Shown here piece after piece: positions 8,788-15,980 of a DNA stretch of 64,000 nucleotides. Source of the DNA: Actinacidiphila acidipaludis (lineage in GTDB: Bacteria > Actinomycetota > Actinomycetes > Streptomycetales > Streptomycetaceae); contig NZ_JAINZZ010000002.1 in NCBI RefSeq assembly GCF_019890725.1, positions 62,001-126,000 of the forward strand, written 5' to 3'. Every line of letters begins with the position of its first letter. The first letter of the stretch is position 1. A program made the position numbers and the translations under genes. The notes beneath the pieces are model-generated. The model ran no database searches, was not told the origin of the DNA, and saw only the letters and a program-made list of their open reading frames with translations.

Positions 8788-10083
8788 TTACGCTGTGCCT
8801 CCGCCGCCCCGGTGGTCCCCGTCGCCGCCCCTGCCCCCGCCGCCGCTGTTCCCGTTCCCGTTCCCGTTCCCGGCCCCGCTCCTGCCCCCGTTCTCCCGTA
8901 AGTGCAGGGCCCGCAGGGCGATCTCGGTGGCGAACCGGTCGTCGGGGTCGTTGAGGCGCTCGCCGAAGGCGCGGTCGAGGATGCGCAGCCGGTAGCGGAC
9001 CGTCTGCGGATGCACGCCGAGCTGCTCGGCGACCTGCGCCGCGGTGCCGCGGGTGGTGAGCCAGATCCGCAGGGTGTCGATGAGCCGGGTTCGCTGAGTG
9101 GCGGTCAGCCCGACCAGCGGATCGAGGTACTTGTGGGTGATCTGGTCCACCAGCGCGGGATCGCCGAGCAGCCACAGCGGCAGCAGGTGGTCCTCGCTCA
9201 GGGTCACCTCGCCCGCGTCGATCACCCCGGAGTCGGTGAGCGCCAGGGTGTGCCGGGCCCAGCGCAGCGAGTCGGCGGCCTCCCCGAGTGGCACGGTCAG
9301 CCCGACCGCGGCCCGGCAGCCGCCGAGCGCGGAGGTGAGCGAGGCGCGCCGCTGGGCGGTGAACGGTCCCGGCACCAGCAGGTGCGGCTCGGGATCGGCG
9401 AGGTCCACCAGGACGTCCCGGTCCAGCAGCGCCCGTGACGGATGGGCGTCCGGGGCGAGGGCCACCAGCGTGACCTCCTCCGGCAGCGGCCAGGCGGAGT
9501 GCTCCGCGAGTTCGGCGAGGACGCCGCGGGCGACCGCGGCGCCGCCGAGGATGCGGCGCAGCAGTCGGCGGCGGCGGTTGTCGGGTTCCTCGCCGAGTTC
9601 GGCGAGCGCCTGCTCGTAGCCCTCGCGGGAGAGTTCGGCCAGGTCGCCCATGTACGCGAAGAGCGCGTCGGCGAAGGTGAGCATGAAGGACGCGGAGAGG
9701 TTGTAGCGCCGGCCGACGGTGCGCACCCGGCGCAGCGCCACCTGGCAGCCGATCCGGTACGCGGCCTGCAGCGAGTCCAGGCTCCTGCCCTCGTACGCCT
9801 CGAAGCGGCCGAACTGGCGGCACAGGTCGTCCCGCAGGGCGCTGGTGGCGGTGGGTGCCGCGACCCTGTCCACGAAAGTGGCGATGCTCTGCTCGATACC
9901 GAATTTGATCACCCGGGCGTTGGGGCCTTCCAGCAGGTGACCGTATTCGGGGATCGCCGCGACGATTTCAGCGGCCATCTCCTTTAATAAACTGGGGAGT
10001 TCTGGTCGCATCACAGCGGCGAACTCCCGTGGAATCGGACCCATCGGTTCCGCTTGTTCCGGGGTCTGCCGCATGACGGTCAT
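8788..10083 (-). CDS. PucR/CdaR-type helix-turn-helix regulator beside the mce locus
   Basis: A 431-residue transcription factor. The C-terminal part carries the PucR-type helix-turn-helix (TAAQVAEQLGVHPQTVRYRL near residues 350-370, then RFATEIALRALHL). The N-terminal 160 residues form a helical sensor-like domain (FGIEQSIATFVDRV, AAYRIGCQVALRRVR) seen in many actinobacterial PucR-like regulators. The start is ATG 10083 with GGGAAGGGGGAGGGG upstream. The last 30 residues are low-complexity Gly/Asn (GNGNGNSGGGG), encoded by GTTCCC-type repeats at about 8848-8872, and are probably dispensable. It is divergent from the secreted-protein/mce block, so I infer it is the local regulator; the effector is unknown. 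Confidence 0.85.
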   Translation of the reverse strand: MTVMRQTPEQAEPMGPIPREFAAVMRPELPSLLKEMAAEIVAAIPEYGHLLEGPNARVIKFGIEQSIATFVDRVAAPTATSALRDDLCRQFGRFEAYEGRSLDSLQAAYRIGCQVALRRVRTVGRRYNLSASFMLTFADALFAYMGDLAELSREGYEQALAELGEEPDNRRRRLLRRILGGAAVARGVLAELAEHSAWPLPEEVTLVALAPDAHPSRALLDRDVLVDLADPEPHLLVPGPFTAQRRASLTSALGGCRAAVGLTVPLGEAADSLRWARHTLALTDSGVIDAGEVTLSEDHLLPLWLLGDPALVDQITHKYLDPLVGLTATQRTRLIDTLRIWLTTRGTAAQVAEQLGVHPQTVRYRLRILDRAFGERLNDPDDRFATEIALRALHLRENGGRSGAGNGNGNGNSGGGGRGGDGDHRGGGGTA

Positions 10084-10596
10084 CCCCTCCCCCTTCCCGG
10101 ACGCTGGTCATTGCGTCGGTGACCTCGCTGCAAGATAGACCACGTGTGCACGGAGCGCAGCACCTCGGACACGGAAACGTTATCGGTGCTGTGCGGTCTG
10201 CGATGCGGCGGAGACGGCGCGGTGGATCACCGTGGTCCGGCGCGTGCCGGATCGCCGCGGCCGTATCCGGCCGCCGCCCCGGCGCCGACCGTACCGCGCC
10301 GGCCGCGCGGCGGAGGCGGGAACCGTTCCGGCGCCGGCGGTTGCTCACCTTCTCACAAAAACCACCGGGCGCCTGTTGCCGCGGTGACAAAGAAATACCC
10401 GTCGGTAAGGTCCGCCGCAGAATCTTGGCGCGGATTATTGCGCCCCCGGGTTACCCGTGCGTAACGTCCAGCCCCGCAAGGGCAACCGACCGGAATCGGT
10501 ACCCGTATCCAGGTAGTGAGTCGCAACCGAATTCTCGCCCTGAACAGCGAGGACCGCGGTTTATCAGGCACGTCCACTCAAGGGAAGGACCAGCCC
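10084..10596. other. 513-bp divergent intergenic region before the mce locus
   Basis: No convincing gene: the open frames crossing it lack usable starts and are out of register with the flanking genes. It holds the palindromic element at 10450-10471 and should contain the promoters of the PucR-type gene (leftward) and the secreted-protein gene (rightward). The stretch 10440-10530 is less GC-rich than its surroundings, as expected of a promoter. Confidence 0.5.
10450..10471 (+). promoter_or_regulatory. Palindromic element, copy 1 (GTTAC-N6-GTAAC followed by GTCCAG)
   Basis: GTTACCCGTGCGTAAC (10450-10465) is a dyad with 5-bp arms, followed directly by GTCCAG. Nearly the same string stands before the next secreted gene at 11453-11474. 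It may be an activator/repressor site for the PucR-type regulator or a TetR-type lipid regulator. The GTnAC-N6-GnAAC spacing also resembles GlnR half-sites. Confidence 0.5.
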
Positions 10597-11229
10597 GTGC
10601 GCAAGCTCTCCACTCTCACCAGGACCGGCCTCGTCGCCGGCTCCGCGGTCGTGGCCGCCGTTGCCTTCGCGGCCGCTCCGGCCAACGCCGCCGGAACCTG
10701 GACCGTGTCCGGTGGCGGCAGCTTCACCGGTAAGTCCACGAACTCCACGCTGACCGACACCAGCACCGGCACCCAGCTCAAGTGCACCTCGTCGTCGGCC
10801 GGCGGTTCCGCGGCCAACGGCACCGGCCTGTCGGGCACCAACATCGGCACGATCAGCAGCGTCACCTGGAGCGGCTGCTCCGGCCCGCTGGGCATCACCT
10901 TCAACGTCACGGCGGACGGCCTGCCCTGGCACCTCAACGCCGTCAGCTACTCGGGCGGCGTCACCACCGGCACCCTGACCGGTGTCAAGGCCCACATCGG
11001 CGGGTTCGGCTGCACGGCGAGCTTCGCCGGCGCGTCGTCCACGGCGACCGCGACGCTGGACGTGAAGTACAACAACAGCACGCACGTGCTGTCCCTGCTG
11101 GGCACGGGCAACCTGCACGCCTACGGCGTGTCCGGCACCTGCCTCGGCCTGATCAACTCCGGCGACCCGGCCTCGTACAAGGGCGACTACACCCTGACGC
11201 CCGCCACGCTGAGCATCACCTCGCCGTGA
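10597..11229 (+). CDS. Small secreted protein of unknown function upstream of the mce operon
   Basis: Not recognised with certainty. The 210-residue product has a Sec signal peptide (basic RKLSTLTRTG, hydrophobic core, ANA-AG cleavage near residue 30). The mature domain is rich in Thr, Ser and Gly with beta-strand character and conserved-looking Cys pairs (LKCTSS, SGCSG, GFGCTA, GTCLG) that probably form disulfides. GTG 10597 is chosen because it begins the signal peptide and has AAGGGAAGGA upstream; the frame is open 81 bp earlier without a signal. It is followed by a terminator, so it is probably a single-gene transcript. Sharing a promoter element with the next gene suggests joint control with the mce locus. 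Confidence 0.75.
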   Translation: MRKLSTLTRTGLVAGSAVVAAVAFAAAPANAAGTWTVSGGGSFTGKSTNSTLTDTSTGTQLKCTSSSAGGSAANGTGLSGTNIGTISSVTWSGCSGPLGITFNVTADGLPWHLNAVSYSGGVTTGTLTGVKAHIGGFGCTASFAGASSTATATLDVKYNNSTHVLSLLGTGNLHAYGVSGTCLGLINSGDPASYKGDYTLTPATLSITSP

Positions 11230-11267
11230 TCCCGCGCTAGCGCGACGGCACTCCCCGCACCAGCAGC

Positions 11268-11298
11268 GACCCCGGCTCCGCGACCCGGAGCCGGGGTC
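11268..11298 (+). terminator. Terminator hairpin after the small secreted protein
   Basis: A perfect 13-bp stem, GACCCCGGCTCCG (11268-11280) with CGGAGCCGGGGTC (11286-11298), closes a 5-nt loop 39 bp after the stop codon. Its position and strength fit a factor-independent terminator of the GC-rich Streptomyces kind, which lacks a T-run. Confidence 0.75.
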
Positions 11299-11452
11299 CT
11301 GTACTCAGCCCGGCGACAACCGCGGGCCGGGCCCCGGCGCGGCCCGCTCACTGGACGACAAAATTCCGTTTTTCCCTTGTCATCCGGTGACAAGAATTCC
11401 CGCCTCGGGCAACGACTCCCGTCTTCGGCCGCTCGATCACTTGTCTGAGCTA

Positions 11453-11474
11453 ATTACCCGCACGTAATGTCCAG
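11453..11474 (+). promoter_or_regulatory. Palindromic element, copy 2 (ATTAC-N6-GTAAT followed by GTCCAG)
   Basis: ATTACCCGCACGTAAT (11453-11468) plus GTCCAG repeats the element at 10450-10471 with only a few substitutions. The outer bases change in a paired way (G/C to A/T), so the dyad is kept. It ends 29 bp before the ATG at 11504, so it overlaps or closely flanks the promoter. Confidence 0.55.
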
Positions 11475-11503: not shown

Positions 11504-13255
11504 ATGAGGGGTGGCGTGAGACCGCGTCGATCGGTGCGGTTCGCGGCCGTCGCGACGGCGGCACTGGTGGCGGGGGCGCTGCCGGGCACGAACTCCGCGG
11601 CCAGCGGGGGGCGGGGCGAACTGTCCCTCGCCTATGCCTGCCAATTCGCCTCCGGTGAGCAGGACGTGACGATCGCTTTCACGCAGCGATTCCCGCAGAC
11701 CGCGACGGCCGGAAAACCCATTCAGCCCGGTGACCTGGCGATGGCCGTGACCATTCCGCGGGCCGGCGTCACCGCGATGCTTCCGGCAGCCACCGCTTCG
11801 GTCAGCGCCGAGAGCGACCTCACCGCCCACATCACCCAGGGGTCGTCCGACGCCGACGCCGACTGGTCGGGACTCACCGCGCCCGAGACCTCCCTGGCCG
11901 GGACGGACGACGTGGTGCTCACCCTCACCGGCAAGGCGCCCGCCGTCACGGTCACCGCGTCCGGCGACGTCGCCTTCTCCGTCGGGGTGCTGACGCTCAC
12001 CCTGCATCCGCGGGCGGCGGCCGCCGGCACCCCCACGACCCCGGCCCCCGGCCCGACGACGGCCCGCGCGGCGGGGACGGCCACGGCGGCCGCGACGGAC
12101 ACGAACGCCACGACGGCCGACGGCACGACGGCCAACGGCACCGCGTCGGACGGCACCACGGCGGACGGCACCACGGCGAGCGGGGCAGCGGCCGCGGGCG
12201 ACGTGACCGGCACCTGCACCCCCGAGCCGGGCCAGGACGCCGTCCTGGCCACGGTCCATGTGCCGGGTCCGACCGGCACCACGCTCCCCGGCCACTCCGC
12301 CGCCGCCGGCCCGGTCGCCGGGCGCGGCGGCCGGTCCACCGGCCACGCCTCCGGCGCCGACGGGACCGCGTCCGGCAGCTCCGGGCCGTCCGCGGCGGCC
12401 GGCCGGGCGGGCGGCACCATCGTCCCGCTCGACCAGCCCGTCCACTCCGGCGTCAGCACCTGCGGCAAGACCCCGATCGCCCCGCTGGACCCCAGGCGCC
12501 TGCCTCCGGTGAGCGACACCGGGATCGTCGTGCCCATGCCCGGCCAGCCCGCCTTCCCGCCGGGACCGATGTGCGGTTTCGCAGTGGGCTTCTCCAACGT
12601 CAACAAGCTCAACGGTGCAATGATCATCAACGATCCGCACGCCAAGCCGGTCCTGGCCGAGGTCAACTCCGGTCAGCGCAAGGTCCTGGACTACTCCAAG
12701 CAGTATGTCGAGGTCGACTCGATCATCGACCTGAGGCTGCCGCCCTCGGCGTCCACGTTCCTCACCTTCGGCTTCATGCCCACCACAGCGGACGTGGAGT
12801 TCATCCCCCGCGGCGTGTTCACCGTGGTGCAGACCGGCGACGACTTCTTCGGCGAGCCGATCCTCACCACCATCGGCGGCTACCAGGACATCCGGATCCA
12901 CAACGTGCGGATCAACGGCACCCCGCTGGACGTCGGCCCGGACTGCCACACCGCCAAGCCCCTCGACATCGTGCTGCACGGGCGCAAGGACAGCGGCCTG
13001 CCCGACGACGACGGCAAACCCGACTACTTCATCGACGCCGGCGGCCCGCTCACCGACGAGGACCTGGTGATCCCGCCGTTCACCGGCTGCGCCTCGCACG
13101 GCGAGAACCTCGACGCGCTGTTCACCGCCGCGCTCTCCGGCCCCGGCAACTCGCTCAACATCTCCCAGGGCCCCCTGTGCGACCCGATCAACGTCCCGGA
13201 GTCGTGCCTGCCCGAGATCCCGATCCCGCAGCTCCCGCAACGCAAGAAGAGCTGA
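11504..13255 (+). CDS. Secreted DUF6801-like protein, first gene of the mce transcript
   Basis: A 583-residue exported protein of unknown role. The signal peptide covers roughly residues 1-35 (RPRRSVRFAAVATAALVAG). The first domain begins LSLAYACQFASGEQDV and resembles DUF6801 of actinobacterial secreted proteins. A Thr/Ala/Gly linker with TTADGTT-like repeats (about residues 175-240) follows, then a second cysteine-containing domain. The C-terminal half (CGFAVGFSNVNKLNGA, SSTFLTFGFMP-like strands) looks like a second beta-rich lipid- or polymer-binding module. ATG 11504 has GAGGAG eight bases upstream. It ends 50 bp before the mce ATPase gene with no terminator between, so co-transcription is likely. 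I infer an extracytoplasmic accessory role in Mce-dependent uptake. Confidence 0.75.
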   Translation: MRGGVRPRRSVRFAAVATAALVAGALPGTNSAASGGRGELSLAYACQFASGEQDVTIAFTQRFPQTATAGKPIQPGDLAMAVTIPRAGVTAMLPAATASVSAESDLTAHITQGSSDADADWSGLTAPETSLAGTDDVVLTLTGKAPAVTVTASGDVAFSVGVLTLTLHPRAAAAGTPTTPAPGPTTARAAGTATAAATDTNATTADGTTANGTASDGTTADGTTASGAAAAGDVTGTCTPEPGQDAVLATVHVPGPTGTTLPGHSAAAGPVAGRGGRSTGHASGADGTASGSSGPSAAAGRAGGTIVPLDQPVHSGVSTCGKTPIAPLDPRRLPPVSDTGIVVPMPGQPAFPPGPMCGFAVGFSNVNKLNGAMIINDPHAKPVLAEVNSGQRKVLDYSKQYVEVDSIIDLRLPPSASTFLTFGFMPTTADVEFIPRGVFTVVQTGDDFFGEPILTTIGGYQDIRIHNVRINGTPLDVGPDCHTAKPLDIVLHGRKDSGLPDDDGKPDYFIDAGGPLTDEDLVIPPFTGCASHGENLDALFTAALSGPGNSLNISQGPLCDPINVPESCLPEIPIPQLPQRKKS

Positions 13256-15104: not shown

Positions 15105-15980
15105 ATGACCCTCGTCGACGAGGACGCGCCGCGGGCCGAGCCGCCGCGACCGCCACGCCGCCGGGCCCCCTCCGGGACGCGCTGGCTGCGCTGGCTGGAC
15201 GAGACCGGCGACCACCTCATCTTCCACATCACCGCGGTGCTGTGGATCCCGCGTACCCTGCGCCGCTACCTCAGGGAGGTGCAGCGCCTGCTCGCCGAGG
15301 TCGCGTTCGGCAGCGGCGGCCTCGGTGTCATCGGCGGCACCGTCGGCGTGATGATCGGCATGACGCTGGCCACCGGCACCGTCGTCGGCCTGCAGGGCTA
15401 CGCGGCGATGAACGAACTGGGCACCACCGCGTTCACCGGCTTCATCTCCGCGTACTTCAACACCCGGGAGATCGCCCCGCTGGTGGCCGGCCTGGCCCTG
15501 TCCGCCACCGTCGGCGCGGGCTTCACCGCGCAGCTCGGCGCGATGCGGATCAACGAGGAGGTCGACGCGCTGGAGGGCATGGGGGTGCGCAGCATGCCCT
15601 ACCTCGTCACCACCCGGATCATCGCCGGCGTCGTGGCGATCGTGCCGCTGTACGGCATCGGCCTGCTGAGCAGCTACGCGGCCTCCCGGCTGGTCACCGT
15701 GTGGGTCAACGGCCAGTCCTCCGGCACCTACGACCACTACTTCAACCTGTTCCTGTCGCCCGCCGACGTCCTGCTGTCCACCCTCAAGGTGCTGATCTTC
15801 AGCGTCGTGGTGATCCTCGCCCACTGCTACTACGGCTACACCGCCAAGGGCGGCCCGGCCGGAGTGGGCATCGCCGTGGGCCGGTCGGTGCGCAACGCCA
15901 TCGTGATCATCTCGGTGACCGACTTCTTCCTCAGCCTGGCGATCTGGGGCGCGACGACCACGGTGCGGGTGGCCGGATGA
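15105..15980 (+). CDS. yrbEB: YrbE/MlaE-type permease B of the Mce transporter
   Basis: Second MlaE-type permease (291 residues). It has a charged cytoplasmic N-terminus with an amphipathic interface-helix region (WIPRTLRRYLREVQRLLAEVAFG), then the family core GGTVGVMIGMTLATGTVVGL, FTAQLGAMRINEEVDALEGM and TTRIIAGVVAIVPLYGIGL. The conserved NEEVDALEGMG loop is the cytoplasmic coupling region for the ATPase. Its stop overlaps the mceA start (ATGA). It is about as long as its partner but clearly distinct from it, as in other YrbE A/B pairs. Confidence 0.93.
   Translation: MTLVDEDAPRAEPPRPPRRRAPSGTRWLRWLDETGDHLIFHITAVLWIPRTLRRYLREVQRLLAEVAFGSGGLGVIGGTVGVMIGMTLATGTVVGLQGYAAMNELGTTAFTGFISAYFNTREIAPLVAGLALSATVGAGFTAQLGAMRINEEVDALEGMGVRSMPYLVTTRIIAGVVAIVPLYGIGLLSSYAASRLVTVWVNGQSSGTYDHYFNLFLSPADVLLSTLKVLIFSVVVILAHCYYGYTAKGGPAGVGIAVGRSVRNAIVIISVTDFFLSLAIWGATTTVRVAG

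What the first reader, a model, noticed from the sequence alone, without database searches (positions are those of the whole stretch)
10450..11474. Shared 22-bp palindromic promoter element before the two secreted genes of the mce locus
TTACCCG-YR-CGTAAY-GTCCAG stands before the small secreted protein (10450-10471) and again before the DUF6801-like protein that leads the mce operon (11453-11474). The changes between copies keep the dyad (outer G/C becomes A/T), which argues for a protein-binding site and not chance. It would tie both secreted proteins and the mce operon into one regulon, possibly under the neighbouring PucR-type regulator. The half-site spacing also fits GlnR.
Basis: seen in the sequence. 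Interest (0 to 1): 0.7.

Follow-up and report, generated by a model that had tools for sequence, protein, structure and literature searches.

The report
Family-wide operator linking lipid-uptake genes
A short DNA palindrome sits in front of a secreted-protein gene, an mce lipid-transporter operon and a distant acyl-CoA ligase gene in this actinomycete and in relatives, where it likely lets one repressor, probably encoded elsewhere in the genome, switch these lipid-scavenging genes together.

Summary
A third copy lies about 124 kb away before a long-chain acyl-CoA ligase gene (fadD), and a weaker tandem copy lies 56 bp upstream of copy 1. The element is conserved before sec in 17 of 21 mce loci, before DUF6801-mce in 14 of 21, and before fadD in 70 of 80 family genomes. 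The "GTCCAG" tail is best read as a promoter -10 box (TAAYGT) overlapping the palindrome; a TTG lies 17-18 nt upstream in all 33 A and B sites but not at fadD. The neighbouring PucR protein is unlikely to be the regulator: 48 of the 70 genomes with the fadD site have no PucR ortholog. GlnR fits copy 1 but not copy 2 or most fadD sites. The leading candidate is a TetR-type gene beside ybbN on another contig: present in 70 of 70 genomes with the fadD site, missing in 4 of 10 without it, and 2 kb from a DUF6230 gene with a similar palindrome (28 of 31 loci). Binding is untested and some genomes disagree. Ten literature searches showed no description of this regulon. Real and moderately interesting; the regulator remains open.

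The parts
10395..10413 (+). A': weaker tandem copy ATACCCGTCGGTAAGGTCC, 56 bp upstream of copy 1
   Evidence: 2 mismatches; C83:72395-72413; also found in 8 of 20 related loci, at up to 2 mismatches and 55-56 bp upstream of A
10384..10389 (+). possible -35 of the A' promoter (GTGACA, 16 nt before TAAGGT 10406-10411)
   Evidence: read; GGTGACA in 8 of 9 A' rows; inferred, and one search reports no consensus sigma-70 promoter
10450..10471 (+). copy 1 (site A): GTTAC-N6-GTAAC plus tail; TAACGT 10462-10467 is the inferred -10
   Evidence: a site before sec in 17 of 21 loci
10438..10443 (+). possible -35 of the site A promoter (TTGCGC, 18 nt before TAACGT)
   Evidence: TTG 17 or 18 nt before TAANGT in 19 of 19 A sites, TTGCGC at 18 in 12 of 19; promoter role inferred
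10597..11229 (+). small secreted protein (sec, 210 aa), PraB-like
   Evidence: no Pfam hit; NCBIfam PraB 34.5 bits, E 1.5e-8, below the cut-off of 120
11453..11474 (+). copy 2 (site B): ATTAC-N6-GTAAT plus tail; TAATGT 11465-11470 is the inferred -10
   Evidence: a site before DUF6801 in 14 of 21 loci
11441..11446 (+). possible -35 of the site B promoter (TTGTCT, 18 nt before TAATGT)
   Evidence: TTG 17 or 18 nt before the -10 in 14 of 14 B sites; promoter role inferred
11504..13255 (+). DUF6801 secreted protein, first gene of the mce operon
   Evidence: Pfam PF20611 65.1 bits
13306..14286 (+). MlaF-like ABC ATPase of the mce operon
   Evidence: Pfam ABC_tran; NCBIfam MlaF best, below cut-off
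15105..15980 (+). MlaE/YrbE-type permease of the mce operon
   Evidence: Pfam MlaE 204.6 bits
8788..10083 (-). divergent PucR-type regulator; unlikely to be the factor that binds the shared element
   Evidence: Pfam HTH_30; distribution argument

Best explanation
The 22-bp element is a conserved palindrome upstream of the secreted gene, the mce operon and an unlinked acyl-CoA ligase gene, and it likely acts as an operator overlapping the promoter -10 box, where a repressor encoded elsewhere, probably the TetR-type protein beside ybbN, would block transcription until lipid is available. Shown here: the sequence, its excess over controls, its conservation before sec, DUF6801-mce and fadD orthologs, and the constant TAAYGT beside the palindrome. 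Inferred: that TAAYGT is a working -10; that one dimeric factor binds all copies; that it represses, judged from where the site lies; that the signal is a fatty acid or acyl-CoA; and that the factor is the ybbN-linked TetR. My estimates: conserved regulatory element 0.97; one shared regulon for sec, mce and fadD 0.75; repressor over the -10 0.6; this TetR 0.3.
For: Own genome: three strong copies and one weak copy. 81 family genomes: 165 matches to TTACCSNNNSGTAANGTCC at up to 1 mismatch against 19 for the reversed pattern (summed). fadD site in 70 of 80 genomes (+23 15/15, 19/20, 17/20, 13/19, 6/6). sec site 17 of 21 and DUF6801 site 14 of 21 loci. TAACGT in 54 of 56 fadD and 16 of 19 A sites, TAATGT in 10 of 14 B; TTG 17-18 nt upstream in 33 of 33 A and B sites. 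TetR ortholog in 77 of 81 genomes, in 70 of 70 with the fadD site and missing in 4 of 10 without it (Fisher p 1.3e-4, not corrected for kinship). TTAC-N6-GTAA before DUF6230, 2 kb from that TetR, in 21 of 21 loci and 7 of 10 more. TACC-N4-GGTA at the TetR's own start in 18 of 30 loci. Theme: AMP-binding ligase, MlaE, Lipase_2, PraB-like sec.
Against: Site rows were picked with patterns that hold TAC, GTA and (except DUF6230) TAANGT, so their constancy is partly built in. One search finds no sigma-70 consensus promoter; fadD has no TTG at 17-18 nt (0 of 56); DUF6230 has TAACGA or TAATGA in 20 of 21, so the -10 reading does not extend there. The TetR's own site is missing in 12 of 30 loci, the 30 being the best of 78 places, and was seen in 1 of 7 further genomes with a narrower search; several of these keep the fadD site. 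Six genomes have the TetR but no counted fadD site. G043 has no TetR ortholog (draft, 93% complete) yet keeps two strong mce-locus sites. G054's missing TetR may be an assembly gap (ybbN is cut at the contig end), and it keeps the DUF6230 palindrome. G051 lacks the TetR but keeps TTACTTGCCAGTAA before fadD. G035 and G061 have the TetR but no palindrome before DUF6230. Positions 5 and 10 pair in only 25 of 56 fadD sites.
Confidence: 0.45

Rival explanations
1. The divergent PucR-type regulator (8788-10083) binds the element and controls sec and mce; fadD would carry the same site because a PucR paralog binds it.
For: PucR lies divergent to sec in the 17 of 20 fetched loci where sec was found, and 12 of 13 named loci keep PucR with two or more sites. 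MabR, a PucR-family protein, controls a fatty-acid operon in mycobacteria (PMC11617747, passages).
Against: 48 of the 70 genomes with the fadD site have no PucR ortholog; 35 of 81 have no match at E 1e-40 at all. L210-L212 keep PucR and mce but have no site at up to 2 mismatches. No significant association with the fadD site (22 of 70 against 1 of 10, p 0.15).
Confidence: 0.12
2. GlnR, or the response regulator AfsQ1 with a similar box (recalled), binds the half-sites, so the element is a nitrogen-response box.
For: Published S. venezuelae box GTnAC-n6-GTnAC (PMC3087709 and PMC10704036, passages); 15 of 19 A sites and 13 of 21 DUF6230 sites match it exactly.
Against: 0 of 14 B sites and 14 of 56 fadD sites are within 1 mismatch. 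The box leaves the middle base free, while here it is T on the left and A on the right in 119 of 119 rows, though the search patterns held these bases, so this counts for less. The targets are lipid genes.
Confidence: 0.12
3. The element is an unusual promoter type read by an alternative sigma factor, and the left TTACC is a promoter element and not an operator half.
For: In fadD the right part GTAACGTCC is more constant than the middle, and the copies lie at promoter-like places.
Against: The distance from TTACC to TAAYGT is too short for a -35/-10 pair, and A and B have a TTG at 17-18 nt instead. DUF6230 keeps the palindrome without the T of the -10.
Confidence: 0.1
4. The copies belong to different regulators with look-alike TAC-N6-GTA operators, so sec/mce and fadD are not one regulon.
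For: TTAC-N6-GTAA alone is common (about 8 per genome). Look-alike sites at DoxX and at another TetR gene appear unrelated. Three PucR-mce loci keep no site while fadD in the same genomes does. G043 keeps mce-locus sites without a fadD site.
Against: A and fadD sites within one genome differ at few of 19 positions, and TTACCGATGCGTAACGTGC (L203) is 2 bases from TTACCGATGGGTAACGTCC.
Confidence: 0.2

Closest known systems
KstR regulon of mycobacteria (TetR repressor of lipid-degradation genes; control of mce4 recalled)
   Same: A TetR-type repressor over a large lipid-degradation regulon (PMC1995591, title and start of abstract in a search listing only); the candidate TetR has a weak KstR-model match at its N-terminus (26.8 bits, cut-off 280).
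   Different: The KstR operator (recalled: TnnAACnnGTTnnA) is another sequence; here the factor is unidentified and the targets are sec, DUF6801-mce and fadD.
GlnR box (GTnAC-n6-GTnAC)
   Same: Half-site size and 6-bp gap; copy 1 matches exactly.
   Different: Here the halves are inverted; B sites and most fadD sites fail the box; the targets are not nitrogen genes.
MabR, PucR-family regulator of a fatty-acid operon (FasR of S. coelicolor, a fatty-acid activator, is recalled as PucR-like)
   Same: PucR-type regulators act on lipid genes (PMC11617747, passages; FasR as activator: PMC7324645, passages).
   Different: The element is present where the PucR ortholog is absent, and no site with fewer than 3 mismatches lies in the 7.5-kb fabH region of this genome (L300); I did not identify a FasR gene there.
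MadR (TetR, acyl-CoA-responsive repressor of desaturases)
   Same: A lipid-responsive regulator in actinobacteria (PMC8872791, abstract start and one passage; TetR type recalled).
   Different: Its reported consensus TCTGTGxxxxxxxGT is unlike this element.

Membership tests
Shared transcription-factor operator (regulon element) | Recurs upstream of several functionally related genes above chance | tested here: met
   sec, mce, fadD; 165 matches against 19 in the control over 81 genomes
Shared transcription-factor operator (regulon element) | Conserved before orthologs | tested here: met
   sec 17/21, DUF6801 14/21; fadD 70/80
Shared transcription-factor operator (regulon element) | A protein binds it | not testable with these tools
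   needs EMSA, ChIP or footprint
PucR regulon | Regulator gene present wherever the sites are | tested here: not met
   48 of 70 genomes with the fadD site lack a PucR ortholog
GlnR regulon | Sites match GTnAC-n6-GTnAC | tested here: not met
   A 15/19 exact, B 0/14 within 1 mismatch, fadD 14/56 within 1 mismatch; DUF6230 13/21 exact
TetR-family regulon (ybbN-linked TetR) | Regulator gene co-occurs with the sites | tested here: inconclusive
   fadD sites 70/70 with TetR, 4 of 10 siteless genomes lack it; but G043 keeps mce-locus sites without it, and G054 may be a gap
TetR-family regulon (ybbN-linked TetR) | Autoregulatory site of the same kind at its own promoter | tested here: inconclusive
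   TACC-N4-GGTA in 18 of 30 loci; 1 of 7 further genomes (narrower search)
Repressor operator over a promoter | Site overlaps -10/-35 of a mapped promoter | tested here: inconclusive
   TAAYGT and TTG at 17-18 nt in 33 of 33 A and B sites; not at fadD; no start-site data; negative
KstR regulon | KstR-model protein over the cut-off; KstR operator at targets | tested here: not met
   candidate TetR 26.8 bits against a cut-off of 280; the element differs from the recalled KstR motif

The most novel reading that the evidence does not exclude
A TetR-type repressor beside ybbN, kept nearly throughout Streptomycetaceae, is the master switch of lipid scavenging there: through one palindromic operator set over the -10 box it co-represses the mce importer and its PraB-like secreted partner, the long-chain acyl-CoA ligase, the che1/DUF6230 leader gene and, in some genera, a secreted lipase, as a KstR-like system that evolved with a different operator.
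Probability: 0.22. Interest if true: 0.72.

Novelty: new member of a known kind. Interest (0 to 1): 0.5.

Why it matters
Little seems to be known of what controls mce transporters in streptomycetes (none of my searches found it). A conserved operator-like element shared with a long-chain acyl-CoA ligase suggests, before any experiment, that this mce system is wired to fatty-acid use. It also gives a defined DNA bait (fadD, A and B sites) with which the regulator can be pulled down, and it places two uncharacterised secreted proteins (PraB-like sec and DUF6801) as likely parts of a lipid-acquisition programme.

Tried and rejected
PucR as regulator: rejected on distribution. GlnR: tested on five site classes, fits only part. 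A second TetR gene with two look-alike sites (L167, L223): rejected, present in 8 of 38 genomes. DoxX sites (L214-L218): palindrome read from the other side, probably another factor. MadR: published consensus differs. fabH region: no site below 3 mismatches in L300. Penicillin-amidase sites have a spacer 1 bp shorter and were kept out of the regulon counts. Literature searches that showed no account of this element: (the library lacks most subscription journals).

Slips and selections. My pattern had one N too few; I report it only as a spacing variant (34 of 81 genomes). One search's match list was cut by the tool, so for genomes outside the window's genus the fadD sites were read from fetched upstream stretches. 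G061 is counted as a miss on its closest fadD (L287); its second, 66% identical copy has a site at 2 mismatches (L309), so 71 of 80 would also be defensible. Before profiling fadD sites I dropped L291 and L306-L309, removed and then put back L314 and L316 by choosing the copy with TAACGTCC, left out genomes with no match, and used only the window genome from its genus; the 56 rows are therefore chosen for having a site. The 19 A rows include 2 from L213 that do not stand before a sec gene. The DUF6230 rows were found with a pattern that requires TTAC-N6-GTAA. The gene caller is a home-made GC3 heuristic and misses genes, among them sec and the mce ATPase.

Full report
The observation. Copy 1 (10450-10471, GTTACCCGTGCGTAACGTCCAG) and copy 2 (11453-11474, ATTACCCGCACGTAATGTCCAG) are present as described. 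With up to 3 mismatches the 21-mer matches twice in the window, and 0 of 100 shuffles gave two. In the whole genome it matches 4 places, the reversed control none. Copy 1 ends 125 bp before the GTG of a 210-aa secreted protein (10597-11229); copy 2 ends 29 bp before the ATG of the DUF6801 protein (11504-13255), which leads an mce operon with an ABC ATPase and a MlaE-type permease.

More copies. A third strong copy lies on the same contig (C83:196250-196270, minus strand; TTACCCATGGGTAACGTCCAG), 52 bp before an AMP-binding long-chain acyl-CoA ligase gene, here called fadD. A weaker copy lies at 10395-10413, 56 bp upstream of copy 1; it is also found in 8 of 20 related mce loci at up to 2 mismatches. 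The fourth place (C81:55753, 3 mismatches) was not followed.

Conservation. In 35 genus genomes each has at least one match at up to 2 mismatches, 96 matches in all against 20 in the reversed control (summed). In 81 family genomes TTACCSNNNSGTAANGTCC at up to 1 mismatch gives 165 matches against 19, in 74 genomes. Over 21 PucR-mce loci (window plus L194-L213) a site at up to 2 mismatches stands before sec in 17 and before DUF6801 in 14; L210-L212 have none, and L213 has two sites placed elsewhere in the locus. Of 13 named loci 12 have sites at both places; the thirteenth (L370) is cut at a contig end. Seven of the 13 have contig lengths equal to loci among L194-L200, so they name that set more than they add to it. 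For fadD I set sites against gene starts in all 80 genomes with a fadD match: 70 have a site at up to 3 mismatches in the right direction (+23: 15 of 15; 19 of 20; 17 of 20; 13 of 19; 6 of 6). The misses are G035, G038, G043, G048, G051, G053, G054, G061, G063 and G069. Of these, G035 and G051 keep a perfect TTACTTGCCAGTAA at 4 mismatches from the pattern, G054 has a version shortened by 1 bp, and a second fadD-like copy in G061 has a site at 2 mismatches.

What the tail is. Aligned across orthologs, the right part is GTAAYGTCC; TAACGT occurs in 54 of 56 fadD and 16 of 19 A sites, TAATGT in 10 of 14 B sites. A TTG lies 17 or 18 nt upstream of it in 19 of 19 A and 14 of 14 B sites: TTGCGC 10438-10443 and TTGTCT 11441-11446 in the window. 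A' has GTGACA 16 nt before TAAGGT. fadD has no TTG there (0 of 56) but a CTATC-, CTGTC- or CTGGTC-like run. I therefore read GTCCAG as the end of a -10 box plus flank, and the palindrome as an operator lying in the spacer and over the -10. This is inference: the consensus scan finds no sigma-70 promoter, there are no start-site data, and the search pattern itself held TAANGT. A site at that place would most simply block RNA polymerase.

The dyad. TAC and GTA are kept in 119 of 119 aligned rows of five classes, in part because the search patterns held them. The outer pair is G..C in 18 of 19 A and A..T in 12 of 14 B sites but does not pair in 50 of 56 fadD sites. The next inward pair does not pair in any of the 33 A and B sites and pairs in 25 of 56 fadD sites. 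So the palindrome is a short core, and the covariation argument rests on two fixed states.

Which regulator. PucR: orthologs in 24 of 81 genomes; 48 of 70 genomes with the fadD site lack one. Within the genus, G008 and G013 have no PucR match and no A or B site but keep the fadD site. GlnR: the S. venezuelae box is matched exactly by 15 of 19 A and 13 of 21 DUF6230 sites, but by no B site within 1 mismatch and by 14 of 56 fadD sites within 1 (PMC3087709 and PMC10704036, passages only). A TetR gene on another contig (C117:31022-31618) came up because sites at up to 1 mismatch stood at its own start in four genomes, G004, G014, G023 and G049. It is found in 77 of 81 genomes, in one place each except two in G061; it is present in 70 of 70 genomes with the fadD site and missing in 4 of 10 without (p 1.3e-4, not corrected for kinship). 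In G043, G048 and G051 only paralogs of at most 39% identity are left, in G054 nothing. It lies next to ybbN and 2 kb from a DUF6230 gene with the che1 RNA in its leader (RF02935). A TTAC-N6-GTAA palindrome stands about 340-440 bp before DUF6230 in 21 of 21 loci; among ten further ybbN-side loci seven have one, at 220-390 bp, while L377 (G043), L389 and L390 do not. Against it: its own TACC-N4-GGTA is found in 18 of 30 loci, G043 keeps mce-locus sites without a TetR ortholog, G054's loss may be a contig gap, and DUF6230's palindrome lacks the -10-like tail. I hold it as the leading candidate at about 0.3.

Biology. fadD (AMP-binding), an mce/MlaE importer, a PraB-like secreted protein (34.5 bits, below cut-off; NCBIfam names PraB an alkane oxidation protein activator) and, in other genera, a Lipase_2 secreted lipase with TTACCGnnrCGTAACTTCC (L161-L163) make a lipid-acquisition theme. 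Not all recurrent look-alikes fit it: a peptide-binding protein gene (L154, L155) and an aldo-keto reductase/luciferase-like pair (L158-L160) also carry sites. These places are leads and are not counted as members.

Literature. Ten searches showed no paper on this element. [quoted passage not shown] the SCO3201 site TGGCAGATTCTGCCA is unlike this one. That SCO2131 is this fadD is recalled and untested.

Noticed in passing
L301:6139-6157 and L326-L345 (about 340-440 bp before DUF6230): A TTACYNNNNRGTAAYG-like palindrome stands before the DUF6230 gene (che1 RNA in its leader in L301) in 21 of 21 loci, very constant; no annotation was found for it.
   Followed up: partly
L161-L163: A close relative of the element (TTACCGnnrCGTAACTTCC) stands before a secreted Lipase_2 gene in three genomes of two genera.
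   Followed up: partly
L066, L083, L085, L087, L090: A variant with a spacer one base shorter, nTACCGnCGGTAACGTCC, stands just before a secreted penicillin-amidase family gene in several genera.
   Followed up: partly
L158-L160: TTACCGATCAGTAACGTCC lies between a divergent luciferase-like monooxygenase and an aldo-keto reductase gene, conserved in three genomes.
   Followed up: no
L165, L172, L228: Sites like TTAACGnnCGGTAATGTCC or TTGCCCACCGGTAATGTCC lie between dnaK and a membrane Fe-S protein resembling EtfD (name recalled) in one genus group.
   Followed up: no
L194:5319-7323: Three tandem copies of the sec gene (76, 36 and 47% identity to the window's) before the mce operon; the contig length equals that of an Actinacidiphila rubida record.
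   Followed up: no
G023, G032: The PucR gene matches in two separate pieces in these genomes, so it may be broken or hold an insert there.
   Followed up: no
L214-L218: A TTAC(T/C)CNNGGGTAA-like palindrome lies between an ABC exporter and a DoxX-like gene in five genus genomes, probably for another regulator.
   Followed up: partly
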